Part shown: positions 5,118-49,713 of the stretch, piece by piece
Position numbering within the stretch: position 1 is the first letter of the stretch
How the letters are laid out: the number at the start of each line of letters is the position of its first letter
Virus record (IMG/VR): IMGVR_UViG_3300033997_000406
Coordinates: 1-64,000 of that record
Direction: 5' to 3' (one strand)
DNA from: a virus
DNA length: 64,000 nt
Made by a program: the position numbers and the translations under genes
Notes under the pieces: model-generated
What the model saw: only the letters and a program-made list of their open reading frames with translations
Databases searched by the model: none
What the model was told of the DNA's origin: nothing

Positions 5118-5147
5118 ATTATGAGTTATGCGCTTATTTACTGTAAA
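5118..5147 (-). promoter_or_regulatory. Candidate promoter of the leftward baseplate operon
   Basis: On the minus strand a TTTACA -35 and a CATAAT -10 are separated by 18 bp and lie 31-60 bp upstream of the ATG at 5087. The -35 abuts the dispersed operator-like element. Inferred by eye. Confidence 0.45.
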
Positions 5148-5159
5148 CTGTTAGGATAA
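5142..5159 (+). promoter_or_regulatory. Dispersed operator-like element, site A
   Basis: Reads TGTAAACTGTTAGGATAA, one mismatch from the consensus TGTTAACTGTTAGGATAA seen at other operon boundaries in this window. It overlaps the -35 of the baseplate promoter, a position suited to repression or activation. Confidence 0.6.
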
Positions 5160-5200
5160 TTAAGGCTTGTTCAAATGGTGGCAGCCGCACGATAGGCAGC

Positions 5201-6663: not shown

Positions 6664-7155
6664 ATGACGAACCAAACACCTAACGGCGAGTTCTGTGGTG
6701 CGGACCATTCAAGTGGCCCCGACAGCGGCGCTGAAATTACAGCTACTAACGTCACAATAGAGCTGTGCATTGGCCTGCACGGCGTATGTGTTGTGAGTCT
6801 ATTGGGCGATGAATGGGACTGGGTGGATAACGACCTTGCAAGCAACGGCGCTGATGTGTGGCATGACCGCTTACCAGAACACGACAAGCCAATTCAGGGC
6901 GCATACTCCATAGACTGCAAGGTTTCACTTTACGAGCAAGCCGATCGGTTAACTTATGAAGTAATTTCCTCTGGCCCTGTGAACCCAAAGAACTGGGATA
7001 GCTCTTGGAGCGATAGCGAAAAAGAGACACCTACACCAGCTGATTACTATGAGCTGCAAAAGCAGTATGACCAGCTTCAAACTGAGCTTTTTAGCGCACA
7101 AAAAGAATTGGCCGGCTACCAGAAATTGGAGGCGGCTAATGGTGAGAGGGATTGA
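6664..7155 (+). CDS. Hypothetical protein
   Basis: 163 aa, acidic. The middle (WDWVDNDLASNGADVWHDRL) is Trp/Asp-rich and the C-terminus (YYELQKQYDQLQTELFSAQKELAGYQ) is a short coiled coil. Its last 17 nt overlap the start of the downstream cytosine methyltransferase, so the two are probably co-translated. No known family. Confidence 0.6.
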   Translation: MTNQTPNGEFCGADHSSGPDSGAEITATNVTIELCIGLHGVCVVSLLGDEWDWVDNDLASNGADVWHDRLPEHDKPIQGAYSIDCKVSLYEQADRLTYEVISSGPVNPKNWDSSWSDSEKETPTPADYYELQKQYDQLQTELFSAQKELAGYQKLEAANGERD

Positions 7156-8056
7156 TTTATTTGCTGGTGGCGGTGGAACCTCTACCGGGGCTATTAAAGC
7201 TGGTGTAAACATCATTTGGAGCGCAAACCATAATAAGCTTGCTGTAGATTTCCTTAAAAAAAATCATCCTGGCATGGACGTAATATGCCAAGACCTGCAC
7301 CAGGCCGATTGGTCAACTGTGCCAGAGCATGACATATTGTTTGCGTCACCCTGCTGCCAGGGCCACTCCAGAGCCGCTGGCAAGGTAAAGCGAACCATAA
7401 AAGCGGACCAGAGCAGATCAACCGCTTGGGCGGTTGTAAGCGCATTGGAAGCACACAAAACAAAAGTTGCAGTGATTGAGAATGTGCTCGACTTCATGAA
7501 GTGGCAGCTTTTTGATGCGTGGAAATACGCTATGGAGTCCATCGGTTACACGCTTTCTATTAACCTCATAAACGCTGCCGACTTGGGCGTACCTCAGAAC
7601 CGGTTGAGGCTGATTATTGTAGCTACCAGAACAAAGCACCCGCTGGAGCTAAATCTAACTAAAGAGGATCACGTTCCAGCCAGAACCTTCATAGACCTTT
7701 CTTTTGAAGGTCACGATTGGGATCTAGTGGCTGATAGAGTGCAAAAAACCCGTAGCCGCGTTGAAAATGGTCGGAAGCAGTTTGGTGAGATATTCCTAGA
7801 CGCCGCATATGGCACAGAGCGCAGCGGTCGATCGTTAGATAGGCCAATAGGCACCATAACCACAGTAAATAAACACAGCGTTGTTTTTGGTGACTACATA
7901 CGCCCTATTTCAATAGCTGAAGCAGCTGCAGCTCAATCATTCCCGCCTAACTATAAATGGCCATCATCATCAACAGCAACTAAGCACATGATAGGCAATG
8001 CCGTACCACCACTGATGGCTGAGAAGATAACCACAGCTATCCTGAGAACAATTTAA
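7139..8056 (+). CDS. C5-cytosine DNA methyltransferase
   Basis: 305 aa. Transfers a methyl group from SAM to C5 of cytosine. Motif I is GIDLFAGGGGTSTG, motif IV is SPCCQGHSRA (catalytic Cys in a PCCQGHS variant of PCQGFS), motif VI is IENV, motif VIII is QNRLRL and motif X is IGNAVPP. Start chosen at 7139 because the conserved RGIDLFAGGG begins there and TTGGAGG precedes it. No cognate restriction endonuclease is adjacent, so it probably protects phage DNA from host restriction or marks it. Confidence 0.92.
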   Translation: MVRGIDLFAGGGGTSTGAIKAGVNIIWSANHNKLAVDFLKKNHPGMDVICQDLHQADWSTVPEHDILFASPCCQGHSRAAGKVKRTIKADQSRSTAWAVVSALEAHKTKVAVIENVLDFMKWQLFDAWKYAMESIGYTLSINLINAADLGVPQNRLRLIIVATRTKHPLELNLTKEDHVPARTFIDLSFEGHDWDLVADRVQKTRSRVENGRKQFGEIFLDAAYGTERSGRSLDRPIGTITTVNKHSVVFGDYIRPISIAEAAAAQSFPPNYKWPSSSTATKHMIGNAVPPLMAEKITTAILRTI

Positions 8057-15697: not shown

Positions 15698-17218
15698 TTA
15701 GCTATCAAGCCAGTCGGCCATTTCATCGGCTGCAGTGTCGTGATCTGCATGATCCGATTCGTAGTTATGCGGTACATAGTCAATCAACTGAGTGAAACAG
15801 TACGTGTCAGAGCGGTCAGGCGAGGGGATTTGCAATTTTGTGCGCATGATTTCTTTTTTCATCATCAACCACAGGCCCGATTCATTCATGGACACAGGCA
15901 GCTTAGAAAACTGGTCTATTGTTTTGTTATCGCTATCCAGGCCCATACGTCCCGTCAGAATTGCTGCCTGAGTGTATATGTGCGCCATTGCCCGAAGGTT
16001 AACGAATCTACGCTTAGCCGCTGGCATTTTTGGCGGGAAACCCCACCGAATACGGATAACGGTAAAATCGGGCGCCAGCTCGGACACATGGCTATGCACT
16101 TGATGGCCAGCACCATCGCCGTCTATCGCTATGGTGATATTTGGGTATTGGCCACTACAGCACTCGGCAACAATGCGGCGGCAGAACACGGCCGGATCAA
16201 TATCAGCTGGCATTTCCAGCAGCCGGTGATTGACGACAACCCGCTCTGGCCCAATTGGTCCTGATACCCGGCTAATGTTTATGACAGACCTGTCACGACC
16301 ACCACCAACGTCTATCGTTGCCACCCACCCCCAATCAGCGCCAAGCTTCTGTGCAACAGCGCGTCTGGCTGCTGCAGTAGCTGCCGCTTGAACATCATCA
16401 CGGCCAAGCAGGTAGGCCGACATATTGCGAGGGAAGCAACCCAGTACTTTGATTTGAAACTCAGGACTATCGAACCCGCCATACTCTTTGAGCTTGTCGA
16501 TAATGAATTGCTTGGTGACGTGCTTAGACAGGGCAGAGGACATCGTAATAGAGTGCCAGGTGCCATCTGCTGACATCTTAATGCTAAGGTCATGGTGCGT
16601 TCGGTAAAAGTAACCACCTACACGGGTAGGCTGTGACAGCAGTAGTACTCGGTTATCTTCTGATGTTTGGGCGCCCATGATGACGCCAAACGCTCTGTCG
16701 TTAACACCTGAGGCCTCATCGACAATGGTAAGCATGTGGTCGGCGTGTTCACCGGCTAATGACTCTTCCTGATTTAAGCGGAAGCCTTTAGGGCTGACAT
16801 ACCAGATACCTTTACTGGTACGTTCAAAGAAACTGCTCTCAGTCAGTACAAAATAGTTGGCTATCCAGGGGAACCGGCGCTGCAGTGCCTTAAAGTGTAT
16901 TTTTAGGTTTTTCCAGACCGCATCCATGACCTGGCGTATTTTGTTGGCGATGATGACAACCCGCCCCCCAGGGTGCAGAATCATAAATATGATAATCATC
17001 GCAGCGGTAAGGAAAGACTTGCCGGTACCATGGCCAGAACTGACTGAGGTTCTGCTACCGACCTTACTCACGTTATCCAGCACTTCGCGCTGCTGGAAAT
17101 CTGTCTCAATACCTAATAGTTCAGCACAAGCCAAGTCCCAATCGGCATCGTATCTTCTTATTAGGTCGAGGTAGCGAGGATCACTGACGATACTCAGGAT
17201 GCGCTTTTTGCCACTCAC
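15698..17218 (-). CDS. terL: Terminase large subunit
   Basis: 506 aa packaging motor. Walker A is SSGHGTGKSFLTAAM (about residue 60), Walker B is HMLTIVDEASGV (about 160). The C-terminal RNase-H-like nuclease has ATIDVGGGRDRSVINISR and TIAIDGDGAGHQVHSH as acidic metal-binding strands. GTG start overlaps the terS stop as GTGA. Drives headful packaging; the pac-like array lies just beyond terS. Confidence 0.92.
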   Translation of the reverse strand: MSGKKRILSIVSDPRYLDLIRRYDADWDLACAELLGIETDFQQREVLDNVSKVGSRTSVSSGHGTGKSFLTAAMIIIFMILHPGGRVVIIANKIRQVMDAVWKNLKIHFKALQRRFPWIANYFVLTESSFFERTSKGIWYVSPKGFRLNQEESLAGEHADHMLTIVDEASGVNDRAFGVIMGAQTSEDNRVLLLSQPTRVGGYFYRTHHDLSIKMSADGTWHSITMSSALSKHVTKQFIIDKLKEYGGFDSPEFQIKVLGCFPRNMSAYLLGRDDVQAAATAAARRAVAQKLGADWGWVATIDVGGGRDRSVINISRVSGPIGPERVVVNHRLLEMPADIDPAVFCRRIVAECCSGQYPNITIAIDGDGAGHQVHSHVSELAPDFTVIRIRWGFPPKMPAAKRRFVNLRAMAHIYTQAAILTGRMGLDSDNKTIDQFSKLPVSMNESGLWLMMKKEIMRTKLQIPSPDRSDTYCFTQLIDYVPHNYESDHADHDTAADEMADWLDS

Positions 17219-18348
17219 TCGGATTCACCGCCATCAGTGAATAGCTCGCTGTCGTCGCTGATAGTTTCCTTAACCTCACCAACCTGACCGCTTTCCTCAA
17301 GGATTTGCTTAAGCCAGCCCTCTCGCTCTTTCCTAAAACTCTCATCTTCTTGTTGGCGATTTTTCTTCGCTGTGGCTCTGGCCTCTGCCAGTTCTTCCTC
17401 AGTAACGCCGTTTTCATCCGGTTCTGGCTCAGCTGTCTTAATCTCTTTTTCCGCTTCCATCAGCAGTAGTTTTGGCGGCTCTATACCTTTGGACGCAAAC
17501 AGGTGACAGGTATCAACGGCTGTTAAATTCTCCTGGCTTCGCTGCATCAATATGGCGGCTGTTAACTCAACCACTTCTGATTTAGTCATAGCGCTGATGT
17601 CGCGGCGGTTCTTCTCAATAGATACTGTCTTTTCCTCTACCAGTACCAGCTGACTCATTAGTCGGCTAAATGGCTCAATACCGGAATACTCCACTGACTC
17701 CATTGCTTCAATCAGAGTCATTGGCTCCTGGCGCTCTTCACCATCAGGGCCGATATAAGTCCGGGTTAACTTATTTCCCTTCTCATACATATCAGCAATG
17801 CCATTCATCCGATCACGGCGAATGCGGCTCATGCCTAATATTCTGGTCTTTAAAATCCGGCCCATATCGGATAGGTCTAAATCGTCCGGCTCCATTTCAA
17901 GATCCAGAGACGACATAACAGAGCTATAGCCGCCGTGCTTCATTGCTGCGGTATTGCCTTTCGTAAACGTGCGGGTTCCGTTCGGTCTTGTTTCCACATT
18001 GGGGCGGCTATTGATCGTAATATTCGTTTTTGGTATTTGCGTCGTCTTTTGGCTCCCCACCTTTGCAGTGGTGCGGCGCGCATCTGTGTGCGTGACCTGA
18101 TCAGGTGCCTTGCTTTTTGTTTCCTTTTTGGGTTTATCTAATGCAGCCTTTGTGGTTGGCTTTGTCTTTTTGTCTGCTTTTTTCGGTGGGGTTTCTTGCG
18201 ATTTAGATTGGCTATAAGTTGCCAGCTCACGCCTGAAACTGTTTGGATTCAGGCCGTTGCTCTCGCAATAGTCGCGGCGAGCAGCTGCAGAAGTATCCTG
18301 TAAACTCAGGAATTCAGCACAGTGCTTTTGCCAGTCGATTTTTGCCAA
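17215..18348 (-). CDS. terS: Terminase small subunit (PacA-like)
   Basis: 377 aa. Begins with a helix-turn-helix-like region (KHCAEFLSLQDTSAAARRDY; CESNGLNPNSFRREL), then a charged Lys/Thr linker, then FTKGNTAAMKHGGYSS, a motif common before the oligomerisation core of small terminases, and ends in an acidic tail. Expected to bind the pac array 50-210 bp upstream of its start and recruit TerL. TTG start at 18348 with AGGA 9 nt upstream; that AGGA is part of the operator-like element, so binding there would also block translation initiation. Confidence 0.8.
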   Translation of the reverse strand: MAKIDWQKHCAEFLSLQDTSAAARRDYCESNGLNPNSFRRELATYSQSKSQETPPKKADKKTKPTTKAALDKPKKETKSKAPDQVTHTDARRTTAKVGSQKTTQIPKTNITINSRPNVETRPNGTRTFTKGNTAAMKHGGYSSVMSSLDLEMEPDDLDLSDMGRILKTRILGMSRIRRDRMNGIADMYEKGNKLTRTYIGPDGEERQEPMTLIEAMESVEYSGIEPFSRLMSQLVLVEEKTVSIEKNRRDISAMTKSEVVELTAAILMQRSQENLTAVDTCHLFASKGIEPPKLLLMEAEKEIKTAEPEPDENGVTEEELAEARATAKKNRQQEDESFRKEREGWLKQILEESGQVGEVKETISDDSELFTDGGESE

Positions 18349-18354
18349 AGTTAT

Positions 18355-18372
18355 TTATCCTAACAGTTAACA
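18355..18372 (-). promoter_or_regulatory. Dispersed operator-like element, site D (perfect)
   Basis: The plus strand reads TTATCCTAACAGTTAACA, the exact consensus. On the coding strand its AGGA serves as the Shine-Dalgarno of terS. A TTGAGC -35-like hexamer lies 32 bp further upstream, so the element spans the transcript start region. Confidence 0.7.
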
Positions 18373-18396
18373 TCAGATATTTTGGCAGATGATAAC

Positions 18397-18556
18397 TGAT
18401 CAGCTCAACCTGATCACTGATCAATTTACTATTGAGCGCTAAACTGATCAGTTAGGCTGTGATCAAACGGCGGGCTATTTATTGATTACGCTAAGGATTG
18501 GTGCGGCTTCTGGCGTGATCAGAGCTACTGATCACGCCGCAAATAGATGTTGATCA
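18397..18556. promoter_or_regulatory. pac: Pac-like packaging site: eight TGATCA hexamers
   Basis: TGATCA starts at 18397, 18411, 18418, 18445, 18460, 18516, 18529 and 18551: five on one side and three on the other of a 50-bp gap, 160 bp in all. P1 pac is about 160 bp with seven TGATC(A/G) hexamers grouped four and three around the cut region, and is cleaved only when Dam-methylated. The two hexamers at 18516 and 18529 sit in a perfect 10-bp inverted repeat (GGCGTGATCA, 7-nt spacer). Adjacent to terS. No protein is encoded here. Confidence 0.85.
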
Positions 18557-18565
18557 GATACGCAA

Positions 18566-19171
18566 TTAAGGCTTGAACTCTTGGGGCATGGTCTGCCCTT
18601 TTGGAAGATTCCAGTACTCTAAAAAGGCGCACAAGGCGGCTTGCAGCCCATAGGCGAATACAACGCTATACCCTTCCGCCCTCAGCTCAGCGGCCACCTT
18701 CAACTGCTCAGCTGACGGCTTGCCGGTCATTGTTTTAATCTCCACCCTCAAGCCATGGTAAGCGCCTCGGGCCGCGTCTAATGTCGTATCAGGATAACCA
18801 GCCCTCTGCCCCTCTGACTGCATGATGAAAGCAGTTAGCTTTCCCCGCTTGCCGCTATTGGGTGTTGAGTGTGTCAGTCTGTATATGGCAGGGTGATCAC
18901 TTTCCAAAATCCAAAACAGCTCAACCTGTATAAAATGCTCTTCATTGCCTTTCATCAGCTCCGGATTTTTTTTCAGGCGAGCTAACTCTCTGGCATGTGG
19001 TGAAACTTTCGTACCGCTACGAGCTTTTGCAGTCGCTTTTGGCTTTGATGCTTGCTGAAGGCTGTCGATCGGATTTGATGACCGGCTAGCACTTTTCTGG
19101 CTGACCTTTAAGTGCTTATTGCCGTTGATCAGCTTCTGATAATCTTCCTCGCTGTACCGTAAACCATTCAT
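18566..19171 (-). CDS. VRR-NUC domain nuclease
   Basis: 201 aa. The C-terminal 110 residues show the PD-(D/E)XK layout of VRR-NUC: E in EEHFIQVELFWIL, then GYPDTTLDAARGAYHG, LRVEIKTMTGKPSAEQL and YSVVFAYGLQAALCAFLEYW. D of PDTTL, E of VEIK and K are the expected catalytic residues. ATG at 19171 lies one nucleotide after the upstream stop; an upstream in-frame ATG at 19234 would give a 62-nt overlap. Probable Holliday-junction or branched-DNA resolvase, useful before packaging next to pac. Confidence 0.8.
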   Translation of the reverse strand: MNGLRYSEEDYQKLINGNKHLKVSQKSASRSSNPIDSLQQASKPKATAKARSGTKVSPHARELARLKKNPELMKGNEEHFIQVELFWILESDHPAIYRLTHSTPNSGKRGKLTAFIMQSEGQRAGYPDTTLDAARGAYHGLRVEIKTMTGKPSAEQLKVAAELRAEGYSVVFAYGLQAALCAFLEYWNLPKGQTMPQEFKP

Positions 19172-19172
19172 G

Positions 19173-19928
19173 CTATCGGCCTTTATGCTTTCGGTGCTGC
19201 TTAACTCTGCTGGCCAGCTCTCGTTTGTAATCACCGTACCGCTTCATTATCTCTTTGAAATGAGCGGCCAGCTCTGGAAAAGATGGCTCACTCATAAAGT
19301 GCTCGCCTAAATCTTTAATGTCAGCCAGGCTCTGCTCTGAGGCCAAAGCCCCGGATGATTTAACACTGAGCAGCTGCAAACCCTCGTTGACCGCCTCAAT
19401 AATATCCTGCTTCTTATGGGCCATTATCTTTGTGGCCAACTCTTCTTTTTGCGGCTTGGTCAGCGGTATGCGGGCGCCAGACTGAGCCACCACTTGGCCC
19501 TGACTTTCAAAAATCACCTGAGCTTTGCCGGAGACTTCCAGCAGCAAATACGCACAGTAAGGCGTGGTGTTATATGGCTCAGCCAAGAACTCTGTGCTGG
19601 TACTTAGCAGGATGACATCTAACTTTTCGTCTACGGTATAGATTGGCTCACGCTGCAGCAGCTTGTTTACTTCAACAACATAGGCCCACTTCTGGCGGGT
19701 TCTTTGTAAGTCTGCAAATTGCGCTGACATCAGTTTGGCGGTTTTGTCGTTATGATTTTCGTGCGATTGCACTACGCTGGCCATCTTATCCATGGCCTCT
19801 GACATATCTGCAACCAGCTGAGATAAACGCTGATTATCCTCTGAAAGCGATTTACTCTTTTCTGTTAAATCATTGATTACCAGCTGCTGCAATGCAAACG
19901 CGTCAGCACCATTTGTTGTGTCGCTCAC
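19173..19928 (-). CDS. Coiled-coil hypothetical protein
   Basis: 251 aa, GTG start. Residues 10-75 form a coiled coil (LTEKSKSLSEDNQRLSQLVAD), the middle is globular (LDVILLSTSTEFLAEPYNTT) and the end is basic (RVKQHRKHKGR). Sits between a CxxCxGxG zinc protein and the VRR-NUC gene in the packaging operon. Function unknown; virion or DNA-processing roles are possible. Confidence 0.6.
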   Translation of the reverse strand: MSDTTNGADAFALQQLVINDLTEKSKSLSEDNQRLSQLVADMSEAMDKMASVVQSHENHNDKTAKLMSAQFADLQRTRQKWAYVVEVNKLLQREPIYTVDEKLDVILLSTSTEFLAEPYNTTPYCAYLLLEVSGKAQVIFESQGQVVAQSGARIPLTKPQKEELATKIMAHKKQDIIEAVNEGLQLLSVKSSGALASEQSLADIKDLGEHFMSEPSFPELAAHFKEIMKRYGDYKRELASRVKQHRKHKGR

Positions 19929-20327: not shown

Positions 20328-20331
20328 TTAT

Positions 20332-20349
20332 TTATCCTAACAGTTAACT
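20332..20349 (-). promoter_or_regulatory. Dispersed operator-like element, site E
   Basis: Plus strand TTATCCTAACAGTTAACT, one mismatch. On the coding strand it carries the Shine-Dalgarno of the zinc-finger gene. Confidence 0.65.
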
Positions 20350-21626: not shown

Positions 21627-21632
21627 AGCTAT

Positions 21633-21650
21633 TTATCCTAACGGTTATCA
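21633..21650 (-). promoter_or_regulatory. Dispersed operator-like element, site F
   Basis: Plus strand TTATCCTAACGGTTATCA, two mismatches. Its AGGA acts as the ribosome-binding site of the gene starting at 21626. Confidence 0.6.
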
Positions 21651-24859: not shown

Positions 24860-26059
24860 ATGCAATCCATTGTGCAACAAATTTACGAGCAATCAACTGG
24901 GCCTTTAACAAACCAGCAGCTGTATGACGCACTGGCAGAACGCGGCTATAGCAAAGACGACTATCAGGAAGTTGGTCAGTCAGGTAAGCGCCACAACCTG
25001 TTTTACAGGCGGGTAAGGTGGGTTCAGCAGTCACTTAAAAAGCGATCACTGGTGTTACGCACAGGCAAGAACGCTTGGGAACTGTCCACCCACAGAAAGA
25101 TAGAACTGCGCTCCATAGGAGCTGCACAATCAGTTATAGCTATGAGCACGTCCTTAGGTATCGCTATATGGGGCAAAAGCGAGGTTATTGGTCGCGATGT
25201 CATAGACGAACCAGTGCATTTGATTTTGTCATCGCCACCTTACCCACTCAAAGTAGCAAGGGCTTACGGCAACCCTGTTATAGATGAATACATCGACTTT
25301 CTATCTATGGTGCTTGAGCCGTGGATTGATAAGCTGGCCCCTGGGGGGAGTATTGCGCTTAACGTTAGCAATGACATCTTTGAGGATGGCTCACCAGCCA
25401 GATCAACATACCTTGAAGAAATGACAATAGCCCTTAAAAAACGCTTTGGCCTGCACCTTATGGACCGTATGCCATGGGTAAGCAATAAAGCACCCGGACC
25501 TATTCAGTGGGCCAGCCTTGAAAGAACTCAGCTAAACGTTGGCTATGAGCACATTATATGGTTCACCAACGACCCGTTTAAGTGCTTTTCTAACAATCAG
25601 CGAGTACTGCAAGAGCATTCTGAACAGCACAAACGACTAATGGCCAAAGGCGGAATGCAATACCACTCAACTGCAGCTGATGGCAATTATGTGAAAAAGG
25701 TAGGAGCCTATGGCGCACAGACTAAGGGGCGCATCCCTACAAACGTTCTGCAGTTCTCCAATTACTGTAAATCCGGACGACAAGTAACTGCATTTGCCAA
25801 AAGTTTGGGGATGCCAGCACACGCGGCAAAGTTCCCTGTATCGCTGTGCAACTTTCTGATTGAGTTTTTAACTCAGCCTGGACAGTTGGTTGCTGATATT
25901 TTTTCTGGCACCCTGACCGTAGGGGAGTCAGCAGAAGGGCTAAATAGGCGGTGGGTTTGCGTTGAAATGATGTGGGAATACATTAAACAGTCATTCCCTC
26001 GCTTTGAACGATTCGGGCACGATGTTTATTGGAACCCTTCATTTTTAAAAGCCATTTGA
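24860..26059 (+). CDS. Amino-group DNA methyltransferase (N4-cytosine or N6-adenine)
   Basis: 399 aa. Catalytic motif IV is HLILSSPPYPLKVARAYGN, and the SAM-binding motif I comes late, DIFSGTLTVGESAEGLNRRW, giving the beta-class order. SPPY favours N4-cytosine modification but adenine cannot be excluded. Residues 1-95 form an additional winged-helix-like domain (LTNQQLYDALAERGYS) perhaps for target recognition. No restriction partner nearby. Confidence 0.88.
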   Translation: MQSIVQQIYEQSTGPLTNQQLYDALAERGYSKDDYQEVGQSGKRHNLFYRRVRWVQQSLKKRSLVLRTGKNAWELSTHRKIELRSIGAAQSVIAMSTSLGIAIWGKSEVIGRDVIDEPVHLILSSPPYPLKVARAYGNPVIDEYIDFLSMVLEPWIDKLAPGGSIALNVSNDIFEDGSPARSTYLEEMTIALKKRFGLHLMDRMPWVSNKAPGPIQWASLERTQLNVGYEHIIWFTNDPFKCFSNNQRVLQEHSEQHKRLMAKGGMQYHSTAADGNYVKKVGAYGAQTKGRIPTNVLQFSNYCKSGRQVTAFAKSLGMPAHAAKFPVSLCNFLIEFLTQPGQLVADIFSGTLTVGESAEGLNRRWVCVEMMWEYIKQSFPRFERFGHDVYWNPSFLKAI

Positions 26060-26281: not shown

Positions 26282-26745
26282 TTGAGCGCATTTTTTATTT
26301 GGACAGACTTAGAAACAGGCGGCCTCGCTGGAAAACTGGATAACGGACAACTGGGCTGTAACTACTACCCTATTGCAGAACCTATGGCATTGAGCAGGAA
26401 AGTGCTGAGCAAGCCATCTTGGACCACCTGAAAAGCAACGGCGTCGACGCCTACGACAAAAAAACTAAAACGGGCGGGATTATGGCGGGCAACTCTATAG
26501 TGCTGGACCGTATGTTTATTGCAGCACAAATGCCTAAATTTGAAAGCTACATGCACTATCGCCAACTGGATGCGTCTGCGCTGGCCATTGCTGCCCGTTA
26601 TTGGGCGCCAGAAGTGGCTAAAGAAGCTATAGCGAACAAAGCTTATGGTCATGAAGCGCTGGCGGATATACGGGAAAGCATTGCAGAAGCAAGGGTGTAT
26701 ATGGATATGTTTAAGCTGAAGAGCTTATCACCTAATTTATCCTAA
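26282..26745 (+). pseudogene. DEDD exonuclease (oligoribonuclease-like), broken by deletion and frameshift
   Basis: A TTG at 26282 after AAAGGAG opens AFFIWTDLETGGLAGKLDNG with the Exo I motif, but the frame stops at 26431. A second frame carries the rest: AEQAILDHLKSNGVDAY, then GNSIVLDRMFIAAQ (Exo II), YRQLDASALAIAARYW and YGHEALADIRESIAEA (Exo III with its His and Asp). Compared with family members roughly 50 residues between Exo I and Exo II are missing at about 26380. Activity is doubtful unless frameshifting occurs. Confidence 0.7.
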
Positions 26746-26754
26746 CAGTTAACA
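26737..26754 (-). promoter_or_regulatory. Dispersed operator-like element, site G (perfect)
   Basis: Plus strand TTATCCTAACAGTTAACA, exact consensus. It overlaps the last codons of the exonuclease remnant and ends at the -35 of the next promoter. Confidence 0.7.
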
Positions 26755-33244: not shown

Positions 33245-34081
33245 ATGGACGAGAATTTTACGATCCGGCACAGTGCTGCCCTTATTTCAGCTATTGAGCT
33301 GATGATGTCTACCAAAGTCATAAAGTCAGGTTTAGGAAAAACGATGCAGGCAATAGCTGCATTTTGGAACCCAAGCGGCAATATCTACCCTTCACAATCC
33401 ACGCTGGCCAGCATGACCGGCATACACCGCAGAACCATTATTACCCACATTAAAACTTTGACCGGAATGGCAGTGGTTGAAACCACCACTAGACCGGGGC
33501 GCTATTACAACGGCGAGAAAGTGGCCAGCACACTGATGTATTCATTCAACACGGAAAAGCTGGGCGAACTATTCAGAAAGGCTAAGGCGAAACTCAAAGC
33601 GCAAGCTATTGCCACGGCCAGAAAGGCCAGAAAAGATCACTTCAAAGCACTGCAAAATGATCACACTAACAGAGCTAAAGCTCAGGCCGATAAGATCACT
33701 GTCAGCCAGGCGCTGGCAGACTGGTTTAAATCTCTTTGTCAAAAGGCTTTCAACGCAGAAGTGCGCCACAAAGAAAAGCTGGTGCAGCAACAGGCCTACA
33801 AAAGCGGCATAGAGCGCAATAGGATAGCCAGAGGCGAATTATTTAGCCGCGCTGAGCGCAAGCGAAGGGCTGAGGAAGCTAAGCGAGTGCAACCAGAGCG
33901 CGAGAATGCACAGCAGCTGCATGAACGCATAGTTACCCTTAGCAAGGCTGCCCTTATCAACAAATTTTCGCCTGGCGCATTTACAGACGCCATGTACTAC
34001 GAACTGATGAACATATCGAAGCAAGGGCAGTTACTCGACATCGCTACAAGAATGGCACTGAGCGCGTATAAAGCCGCTTAA
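33245..34081 (+). CDS. Replication initiator-like protein
   Basis: 278 aa. Residues 25-80 form a winged helix typical of phage O/DnaD-type replication proteins: GLGKTMQAIAAFWNPSGNIY then PSQSTLASMTGIHRRTIITH and IKTLTGMAVVETTTRPGRY. The middle and C-terminus are basic and helical (KAKLKAQAIATARKARKDHF). Its own coding region contains three GATCAC boxes (33635, 33659, 33694), partly duplicated just after the gene, resembling initiators whose origin lies inside the gene (lambda O, P1 repL). Probably opens the origin and loads helicase. Confidence 0.7.
   Translation: MDENFTIRHSAALISAIELMMSTKVIKSGLGKTMQAIAAFWNPSGNIYPSQSTLASMTGIHRRTIITHIKTLTGMAVVETTTRPGRYYNGEKVASTLMYSFNTEKLGELFRKAKAKLKAQAIATARKARKDHFKALQNDHTNRAKAQADKITVSQALADWFKSLCQKAFNAEVRHKEKLVQQQAYKSGIERNRIARGELFSRAERKRRAEEAKRVQPERENAQQLHERIVTLSKAALINKFSPGAFTDAMYYELMNISKQGQLLDIATRMALSAYKAA
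33631..33706 (+). repeat. Iteron-like block, copy 1 (inside rep)
   Basis: GATCAC boxes at 33635, 33659 and 33694. The 47 bp from 33659 are about 89 percent identical to the block at 34108. Confidence 0.65.
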
Positions 34082-45386: not shown

Positions 45387-46766
45387 CTAAGCACCAGCAG
45401 GGCTTAAATCAAGACCTTGGCAGTTTAGGAAAAATCGTTGCACCGGTACCAGAGCCTGAAGGTAATCAATACTTTGCCCTAAAATCTGATGGCCAACAGT
45501 CGGGCCGCAGTTTCTTATAAGCACAGGCGGAATTTGCTTTACCGCAGCATGTTCGCCCAACGTCAATAGGCGCTCTTTTCCATCCGGACGAACAACAAAA
45601 GGCTCTGAAGAACGTTTTTTGTTGTAGTGGCGGCCGATCACACCAATAGATTCGGTATCTGCCGTTATGAGTTGGCGATTTGCATAGCCATGGCCTGCAG
45701 CTTCATCGCGTACCTGCTTGTCTTTTAAGTACTGGTTATCAGACCACATGGACTCAGGCGCGTTAATATCCAGAATCTCACCAAAGGAGTTTTGCTTTTT
45801 CGGTAAGTAAAAATCGAAAACCCCTTCAAGCCACTTTGCTGGCAATCCGCTTGATAACGCCATAAACCAGTAGCGCGGGCGGGCCTCAAAGCTGCCTGTA
45901 TTTTGGTTGGTTAATATCTTTTCAATAATAACGTACCCAAGCCGGATCAGCTCTTGTTTTAACAGTATGTAGATTGGGCTGTCTTTAGCGTCCTTCACAT
46001 TTTCGCTTGTGATCATGGCTGGGTTTGATGCAACTATGATGTCTCTTATTCCGAAAAGAGCGGTGCCGGATTCGTGTTCTTCTGCACTTAGTTTGTGCTT
46101 CGATTTACCTGCTTGGGATATGCCAGCACAAGGCAAGCTAAATGTTAAAACGTCGACCTGAGACAAGTACTTGGTTTCCAACTCTTCCAGTGTCGACTCA
46201 AAGCAGGCTGTTTCGTCTGTAATGGCATAGCTATTTGCAAATGCGGATTGCAGGTAACGAATATCGGCATCTACAACCCAAGCGAGCTTACCCTTCAGGC
46301 CTGCACCGACTATGCCGTCATGCGCTGCTGTGGTGCTGATAGCTCCACCCGTGCAGCAACTGCCTTCTGTAACTTCACCATTAGCCAAATGCTCAATAAA
46401 TCTAGCTTCTCGCTCTGCCTGTCTCTGGCGCTCATGGTGGATAGAAATAGTGATAGAGCCAGCTGTGAAAATTGCCCTGATTTTTGTCCCTATAGGGTAA
46501 TCTTCCTTGTACGGCGTCATAGTCATATCAATGACCGGGATAATTACGCCGAATTTAGTCTTGCCAACAACCACGTAATCGCCATCAGGGGAAAGAGTCA
46601 GTGTGATCGTATCGCCCACTCGTTCACGTTTATATTTTTCGCCCTTTGCAAAGCCCGCCATTTCAAGTTTTGCGCCATCAATCCAGAGCCTGGAGCCGTT
46701 ACGATGCTTTGTAACTGTTCTGTAACTAAGCTGCTTAAGCTTACCTATCACGCCTAATAAACCCAC
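45387..46766 (-). CDS. Divergent C5-cytosine methyltransferase with SymE/AbrB-like N-terminus
   Basis: 459 aa. The C-terminal 330 residues carry a C5 methyltransferase core with altered motifs: GSCCTGGAIST (I), FSLPCAGISQAG (IV, catalytic Cys), SENVKDAKDS (VI), RPRYWFMAL (VIII-like) and VGHQILGQSI (X-like). Residues 1-90, YRTVTKHRNGSRLWIDGAKL then GFAKGEKYKRERVGDTITLT, resemble a SymE/AbrB-type DNA-binding barrel. It lies alone on the minus strand next to the 47 kb early block. Presumed DNA modification; the N-terminal domain could target or autoregulate. Confidence 0.78.
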   Translation of the reverse strand: MGLLGVIGKLKQLSYRTVTKHRNGSRLWIDGAKLEMAGFAKGEKYKRERVGDTITLTLSPDGDYVVVGKTKFGVIIPVIDMTMTPYKEDYPIGTKIRAIFTAGSITISIHHERQRQAEREARFIEHLANGEVTEGSCCTGGAISTTAAHDGIVGAGLKGKLAWVVDADIRYLQSAFANSYAITDETACFESTLEELETKYLSQVDVLTFSLPCAGISQAGKSKHKLSAEEHESGTALFGIRDIIVASNPAMITSENVKDAKDSPIYILLKQELIRLGYVIIEKILTNQNTGSFEARPRYWFMALSSGLPAKWLEGVFDFYLPKKQNSFGEILDINAPESMWSDNQYLKDKQVRDEAAGHGYANRQLITADTESIGVIGRHYNKKRSSEPFVVRPDGKERLLTLGEHAAVKQIPPVLIRNCGPTVGHQILGQSIDYLQALVPVQRFFLNCQGLDLSPAGA

Positions 46767-48640: not shown

Positions 48641-48651
48641 GGATGGATCGA

Positions 48652-49713
48652 ATGAGCTTTCAATTTACAGCAACAAAGGGTACTCAGGGCGGCAAAATAT
48701 ATTATGTCGCCAACGTTACTTTTGGCGCTCTGTCGCGGGTTCTGGCTATTGACTCAGGTGAAGTGATGGAGCGTTCACAGCGCGAAATTGAAAAACCAAG
48801 AGCCACAAAAATTCAATCGTATCTGAACGAAAACAGGGAAAGCTATGTGCTGCCAGCGCTAACAGGGATTGTTGACGATCCTAATTTGCTTTTTGAGGAG
48901 TTTGGTCATGCCGGTTCTGGTGTGGGGCGACTTAGCTTGTCGCTGGACGCGGAGATAAAATTGTTTGACGGACAGCATAGAGCGACTGGCATCCGGCAAG
49001 TCCTTAAGCAAAACAACTATATGAAGAACGATCAGATTGCTTTGCAATTATTTGTCGGTATGGATTTGCTGCAGCGTCAGCAGGCCTTTTCAGACATAAA
49101 CAGCAATGCTAAGCCAGTCAGCAAGAGTTTGAATATGGCATATAGCCACCGTGATACAAATGTCCAGCCAATAGTCACTGCGATTGGTCATATATACGGA
49201 TGGGCTGGCCGCATTGATTATGAAAACAATACAGTACCAAAAGACAGTGAAAACATATTCTCACTGCGTAACATCGTACAGGCCTGCAGAATCCATGAAG
49301 GTTGCAGCAAGAATCAAATGCTGGCTCGCAATGCTTATTTGACTATGAGTAGGTACTGGAATGACATTGGTACTACTGTAGGCTGGTTCTTTTTTGAAGA
49401 TGGTGCAGTTAAACAAATACCACGTTCAGAAGGTATGGCCGCAGGGAATATATTTTTTACCGTTGCAGGCCTGATGGTGTTGGCTCGGGTAGGACACAAG
49501 GTGGGGCAGTTGCCAGGCTACGACCCTGATCGAATGAAATTGCTTAATACCGTTTTGCGTCAGGTAGGCCAGCATCGTGACTCCCCGTTTTGGAGGGGTA
49601 ACATTGTCAAAGAGAACGGCAATATGGATGCGTCTACAAGAGCACAAATTACGGCCGCAGATGCGATTATGGAACTGTTCTCTAAAGCCCTAAGTCGTTC
49701 TCTGAATACTTAA
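48652..49713 (+). CDS. DGQHR-domain protein (DndB-like)
   Basis: 353 aa from the ATG at 48652 (AAGGA 8 nt upstream). DGQHR signature IKLFDGQHRATGIRQVL at about residue 105; REIEKPRATKIQSYLNENRE upstream and FSDINSNAKPVSKSLNMAYS downstream match DndB, which regulates DNA phosphorothioation genes in host dnd clusters. No dndCDE here. A phage copy could interfere with host dnd regulation or be an unrelated DGQHR enzyme. Confidence 0.78.
   Translation: MSFQFTATKGTQGGKIYYVANVTFGALSRVLAIDSGEVMERSQREIEKPRATKIQSYLNENRESYVLPALTGIVDDPNLLFEEFGHAGSGVGRLSLSLDAEIKLFDGQHRATGIRQVLKQNNYMKNDQIALQLFVGMDLLQRQQAFSDINSNAKPVSKSLNMAYSHRDTNVQPIVTAIGHIYGWAGRIDYENNTVPKDSENIFSLRNIVQACRIHEGCSKNQMLARNAYLTMSRYWNDIGTTVGWFFFEDGAVKQIPRSEGMAAGNIFFTVAGLMVLARVGHKVGQLPGYDPDRMKLLNTVLRQVGQHRDSPFWRGNIVKENGNMDASTRAQITAADAIMELFSKALSRSLNT

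What the first reader, a model, noticed from the sequence alone, without database searches (positions are those of the whole stretch)
18397..18556. P1-style pac site: eight TGATCA hexamers, 5+3, in 160 bp
Seen: hexamers at 18397, 18411, 18418, 18445, 18460 / 18516, 18529, 18551. Known: P1 pac has seven TGATC(A/G) hexamers in about 160 bp in a 4+3 layout and needs Dam methylation for cutting. The length, grouping, sequence and place next to terS match, although the array lies upstream of terS rather than inside it. Inference: methylation-gated headful packaging in a phage whose proteins are otherwise divergent.
Basis: partly seen in the sequence, partly recalled or inferred. Interest (0 to 1): 0.9.

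Follow-up and report, generated by a model that had tools for sequence, protein, structure and literature searches.

The report
P1-type packaging site, moved outside terS
A relative of phage P1 carries the cluster of methylatable TGATCA sites that P1 uses to start packing its DNA, but here the cluster sits in front of the packaging gene instead of inside it, and comparing relatives shows that this probably methylation-controlled start signal is an old, shared and movable element.

Summary
In detail: eight TGATCA hexamers at 18397-18556, every GATC in a 217-bp noncoding gap, the only such cluster in the 84-kb genome. The window is a complete-looking P1-related phage-plasmid: TerL is 47-50% identical to P1/D6 PacB, TerS is a full-length remote PacA homologue (hhalign 98.8%), plus ParA/ParB and DarA-like genes. 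A survey of 52 TerL lineages found a significant GATC cluster in or beside terS in 22 of 23 lineages with long PacA-type TerS, and in 0 of 29 others. P1, where pac is proven experimentally, is one of the 22. The nearest relative (L010, TerL 71%) keeps the terS-proximal hexamers in register. The phage encodes its own Dam-family methylase (outside the window). So the best reading is a genuine P1-type pac site, probably Dam-gated. It is not a copy of P1's: the array lies upstream of terS, behind an in-frame stop; the order along terS is 3 then 5 rather than 4 then 3; the gap is 50 bp rather than 90. Relocation upstream probably happened at least twice (one clade rejected, p-AU 0.002). Cleavage, binding and methylation dependence remain untested. 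A new variant of a known kind.

The parts
18397..18465 (.). Five-hexamer group (TGATCA at 18397, 18411, 18418, 18445, 18460), the terS-proximal half of the proposed pac site
   Evidence: three terS-proximal hexamers keep 7 and 14 bp spacing in L010
18466..18515 (.). 50-bp gap between the two groups; predicted cleavage region by analogy with P1
   Evidence: position by analogy with P1, whose annotated cut sites lie between HEX4 and HEX3; cleavage itself not tested
18475..18487 (-). IHF-like site AATCAATAAATAG (1 mismatch to WATCAANNNNTTR) inside the gap, same strand relative to terS as the P1 site
   Evidence: chance about 5%, so weak alone
18516..18556 (.). Three-hexamer group (TGATCA at 18516, 18529, 18551), the distal half
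18512..18538 (.). Dyad GGCGTGATCAG-AGCTA-CTGATCACGCC spanning two hexamers
   Evidence: sequence; self-match on opposite strand
18351..18371 (-). GTTAACTGTTAGGATAAATAA element between array and terS start; five copies with up to 3 mismatches in the window; probable late promoter or leader element
17215..18348 (-). TerS, PacA homologue, 377 aa, TTG start: N-terminal helical HTH-like domain (residues 1-50), disordered linker (about 51-115), core
15698..17218 (-). TerL, PacB homologue, 506 aa, 47-50% identical to P1/D6 PacB
18566..19234 (-). 222-aa nuclease or resolvase-like protein (PHROG 2363/824/5702), gene upstream of the array; a similar protein is encoded upstream of terS in L010 too

Best explanation
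The array is the pac site of a P1-related phage-plasmid. The PacA-like small terminase binds the two groups of TGATCA hexamers, probably through its N-terminal HTH-like domain. IHF may bend the 50-bp gap, and the PacB-like large terminase cuts between the groups to start a headful packaging series. Methylation of the GATC cores by Dam, either the phage's own or the host's, probably licenses cutting as it does in P1. Shown: the array, terminase homology, conservation of GATC arrays at this place across the family, and a phage gene of the Dam family. Inferred: binding, bending, cutting and methylation gating. In this lineage the array has been separated from the terS coding sequence and lies upstream of it.
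For: TerL 47-50% identical to P1/D6 PacB. TerS aligns to the PacA profile over its full length, prob 98.8%, E 4.6e-17. P1's own pac gives the same kind of array, 7,12,15|96|12,11 spacing, span 159 vs 160 bp. 22 of 23 long-TerS lineages have a significant GATC cluster 0.7-1.6 kb before TerL, 0 of 29 others do. Nearest relative L010 keeps a 7-hexamer upstream array with the proximal part aligned. A clade whose TerS lacks the HTH-like domain and linker also lacks the array. The N-terminal domain is confidently helical (pLDDT 89-97) followed by a disordered linker. The phage encodes PF05869 Dam at 79799-80602 of the 84-kb record; L010's record encodes PF02086 Dam. P1 pac needs Dam, and mutating its hexamers lowers P1 titre about 9-fold (PMC10028697, PMC12707154).
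Against: No virion-end, binding or methylation data. The array is outside terS, unlike P1. The order of the groups along terS is reversed and the gap is shorter. The IHF-like site is weak, and many relatives lack one. Several array-bearing relatives encode no Dam of the two families searched. Moritella plasmid pMR24a, with TerL 52% identical to the window's, has few GATCs near terS.
Confidence: 0.83

Rival explanations
1. The array is an operator: TerS or another regulator binds it to control terS transcription in a methylation-sensitive way, and packaging starts elsewhere.
For: The array ends 48 bp before the TTG start, and a repeated promoter- or leader-like element lies between them.
Against: In most relatives the same array lies inside terS; in P1 it is downstream of the pacA promoter and is pac. 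No sigma-70-like promoter was found here. It could do both jobs.
Confidence: 0.08
2. Real pac site, but binding and cutting do not depend on Dam; the GATC core is only part of the TerS recognition sequence.
For: At least one relative seems to use another motif (Moritella TTTGGCA x4), and several array-bearing records encode no Dam of the two families searched.
Against: The GATC core stays while flanking bases vary between lineages (TGATCA, CGATCA, TGATCC, CGATCC). The window phage and L010 each carry a Dam-type gene, from different families.
Confidence: 0.2
3. Replication or partition site rich in Dam sites (ori, or a parS centromere).
For: GATC clusters occur at some replication origins (own knowledge), and ParA/ParB genes lie 3-6 kb away.
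Against: All GATCs share the same flanks, the array follows terS across the family, and the replication-protein gene (33245-34081) and parAB are elsewhere.
Confidence: 0.03
4. Chance cluster or residue of repeats.
For: Random TGATCA clusters do occur in large collections.
Against: Never reached in 20,000 random placements, conserved in L010 and matched by GATC arrays across 22 lineages.
Confidence: 0.01

Closest known systems
Bacteriophage P1 pac (HEX4-gap-HEX3) with PacA/PacB
   Same: TGATC(A/G) hexamers in two groups over about 160 bp; homologous TerS and TerL; IHF-like site in the gap on the same strand relative to terS; phage-encoded Dam-type methylase
   Different: Array upstream of terS, not inside it; groups 3 then 5 along terS instead of 4 then 3; gap 50 not 90 bp; all eight TGATCA, no TGATCG; Dam from another family (PF05869 instead of PF02086)
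Putative pac of IMG/VR contig 3300036770_005287 (L010)
   Same: TerL 71% identical, upstream array, three proximal hexamers in identical spacing
   Different: 7 hexamers as 2+5; the distal pair lies inside a 111-aa upstream ORF; PF02086 Dam
Putative pac of L030/L048 (IMG/VR 2903352716_000007, 2869455143_000004)
   Same: Array upstream of the likely real terS start
   Different: Separate TerL branch next to the D6 group; one five-hexamer group
D6-type pacA region
   Same: Homologous terminase; GATC cluster inside terS
   Different: Flanks mostly TGATCC, and the cluster is only marginally significant

Membership tests
P1-type pac site | About 160 bp with seven TGATC(A/G) hexamers in two groups around a gap | tested here: met
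   8 TGATCA, 160 bp, two groups; counts 3+5 instead of 4+3
P1-type pac site | Lies inside the pacA coding sequence (true of P1; treated here as descriptive, not defining, because the position varies among relatives) | tested here: not met
   Upstream of TTG start, in-frame TAA between. L010, L030 and L048 are also upstream
P1-type pac site | Served by PacA and PacB homologues | tested here: met
P1-type pac site | IHF site between the groups, near the cut | tested here: inconclusive
   One-mismatch site at 18475-18487, chance about 5%
P1-type pac site | Cutting requires Dam methylation | not testable with these tools
   GATC cores present; phage Dam-family gene present
P1-type pac site | Packaging series starts by cleavage in the gap | not testable with these tools
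   No reads from virion DNA; contig has a 127-bp end repeat, so it closes as a circle
P1-like phage-plasmid | Phage structural genes plus partition genes, P1-type terminase | tested here: met
   ParA/ParB, DarA-like, portal, tail, terminase

The most novel reading that the evidence does not exclude
P1-family pac sites are a movable, evolving epigenetic address: a Dam-methylatable GATC core is kept while the flanking bases change by lineage with the PacA DNA-binding domain. The array can leave the terS gene, and in the window's lineage the order of the groups is flipped relative to terS, possibly reversing the direction of packaging relative to the terminase genes.
Probability: 0.4. Interest if true: 0.68.

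Novelty: new variant of a known kind. Interest (0 to 1): 0.52.

Why it matters
P1 pac is a textbook case of DNA methylation controlling when a virus packs its genome, but the held papers found here describe it only in P1 itself. A family-wide set of natural variants, with different flanks, positions and spacings, makes it possible to test which parts of the signal matter, how terminase specificity evolves, and why many of these phages carry their own Dam. It also gives predicted packaging starts for many phage-plasmids, which bears on how they transduce host genes.

Tried and rejected
Protein-only search of viral contigs with TerS found nothing: TerS is too divergent, so TerL was used. PDB sequence search and Foldseek with the TerS model gave no significant match; the HTH assignment rests on the conserved motif and three confident helices. 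A universal IHF site was rejected: many relatives have none. Strong single-strand folding of the array (z -4.6) was set aside because palindromic hexamers fold by themselves. A single origin of upstream arrays was rejected (p-AU 0.0023), though long branches are present, the group was named after the arrays were seen, and the direction of the move in the window's lineage is parsimony only. The A. wodanis plasmid (L269) shows five upstream GATCs, mostly AGATCA, but too weak to count. The P1 primary papers (Sternberg and Coulby 1990; Lobocka 2004) are not held. An earlier count said 13 of 17 array-bearing records encode a Dam; the right tally is 11 of 17, or 13 of 19 with L024 and L148.

Full report
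Observation. They fill most of a 217-bp intergenic stretch (18349-18565) between a 222-aa nuclease-like gene and a 377-aa gene, both on the - strand. Random placement of the window's 34 hexamers never gave eight in 160 bp, and no other stretch of the 84,431-nt record comes near. All eight GATCs in the stretch are TGATCA, against 14% elsewhere, which points to a protein that reads the whole hexamer and not only to Dam. Overall GATC frequency in the genome is ordinary: 236 observed, 225 expected from dinucleotides, 324 from trinucleotides. The record has a 127-bp end repeat and so closes as a circle.

Surroundings. The genome is a P1-related phage-plasmid: ParA and ParB, DarA-like head protein, portal and tail proteins. 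The 506-aa TerL is 47-50% identical to PacB of P1 and D6. The 377-aa TerS barely matches P1 PacA by BLAST, but a profile of it and its two nearest relatives aligns with a PacA profile over the full length (prob 98.8%, E 4.6e-17). AlphaFold gives a confident three-helix N-terminal domain (residues 6-50), a disordered linker, then a helical core.

P1 as yardstick. In P1 the same scan finds hexamers spaced 7, 12, 15 | 96 | 12, 11 over 159 bp inside pacA, with the annotated IHF site and cut sites in the gap. An eighth, TGATCG, lies 28 bp further on. Published work describes a 161-bp pac with seven TGATCA/G hexamers in HEX4 and HEX3, bound by PacA/PacB with IHF and HU; synonymous changes in the hexamers cut P1 titre about nine-fold (PMC10028697). 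P1 needs Dam methylation at pac, and its own methylase is essential in Dam-negative hosts (PMC12707154).

Family survey. TerL relatives were collected from viral contigs, bacterial genomes, phages and plasmids. After removing near-copies, 52 lineages remained. Of the 23 with a long PacA-type TerS, 22 have a significant GATC cluster 0.7-1.6 kb before TerL; of the other 29, none does (first version). The grouping was made after the arrays had been seen and lineages are related, so the Fisher value (8.5e-14) overstates independence, but the pattern is clear. In a Vibrio/Shewanella/Tolumonas clade TerS is only 233-248 aa, lacks the HTH-like domain and linker, and has no significant array. This suggests that the N-terminal domain is what reads the array; it is one evolutionary event, so it is a lead and not proof.

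Variation. In most relatives the array lies in the terS linker and is translated as Asp-His / Asp-Gln repeats, in more than one reading frame in most of them. The bases around GATC differ by lineage: TGATCA in P1, the window and most others; CGATCA in L017; TGATCC in D6 and L029; CGATCC in an A. hydrophila plasmid. In the window and L010 (TerL 71%) the array is upstream of terS; the proximal hexamers align and keep spacing 7 and 14. In L030/L048, on a different TerL branch, the array is also upstream of the likely real start. The tree rejects a single clade of upstream arrays (p-AU 0.0023), so the move probably happened at least twice. Moritella pMR24a (TerL 52%) has few GATCs there but four TTTGGCA upstream of terS, possibly a GATC-free version; this was found after the fact.

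Dam. The window's genome encodes a PF05869 Dam-family protein at 79799-80602 of the record, outside the window. L010's record and eight others encode PF02086 Dam. In all, 11 of the 17 array-bearing records first searched carry one or the other, and 13 of 19 if L024 and L148 are added (L148's array is not significant). Five of the six without belong to one Aeromonas/Leclercia-type clade; the sixth is a 56-kb fragment. That different families of Dam appear in close relatives is consistent with a need for GATC methylation, but a phage Dam may serve other ends such as anti-restriction. That the PF05869 protein methylates GATC is taken from its family name.

Orientation. Along terS the window has 3 then 5 hexamers, while most relatives with two clear groups have the larger group first. 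Read on the opposite strand, the window's spacings (14, 7, 27, 15 | 56 | 13, 22) resemble P1's (7, 12, 15 | 96 | 12, 11) with 27 = 12+15, which would suit an inverted site. The IHF-like site, however, has the same orientation relative to terS as in P1. Whether packaging runs the other way cannot be decided here.

Mechanism and confidence. TerS binding, IHF bending, TerL cutting in the gap and headful packaging are inferred by homology with P1. I put the pac identity at about 0.83 overall and Dam gating, given pac, at about 0.75-0.8. An additional regulatory role for terS is possible, because the array lies directly upstream of the repeated GTTAACTGTTAGGATAAATAA element.

Verdict. Real, very probably functional on comparative evidence, and a new variant of a known kind. 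The wider result, a movable GATC-core array shared across the P1-like terminase family, is the more interesting part.

Noticed in passing
window 18351-18371(-), 20328-20348(-), 26733-26753(-), 5143-5163(+), 21629-21649(-): GTTAACTGTTAGGATAAATAA, five copies with up to 3 mismatches (0.01 expected); the core CTGTTAGGATAA has ten copies with up to 1 mismatch. Probably a shared late promoter or leader element.
   Followed up: partly
G000 79799-80602 (+), outside the window: Phage-encoded PF05869 Dam-family methylase, while the closest relative L010 uses a Dam of another family (PF02086).
   Followed up: partly
L270:5127-5912 (Moritella pMR24a), also L136 (Escherichia): A TerL-like protein covering only the N-terminal ATPase half; in Moritella it sits between terS and a full terL, in L136 it is a second, partial match in the same contig as a full TerL.
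   Followed up: no
window 48643-49713 (+): DndB-like protein (PF14072, DNA-sulfur modification-associated), E 1.9e-57, in a phage genome.
   Followed up: no
window 24860-26059 (+), 7049-8056 (+), 45387-46766 (-): Three further DNA methyltransferase-like genes: N6/N4 type with an Mrr_N-like start, C5 type, and a diverged C5 type.
   Followed up: no
L034, L043 (Vibrio-type phages): TGCGCAA repeated three or four times in the terS linker, in addition to CGATCG sites in L034; possibly a differently coded pac.
   Followed up: no
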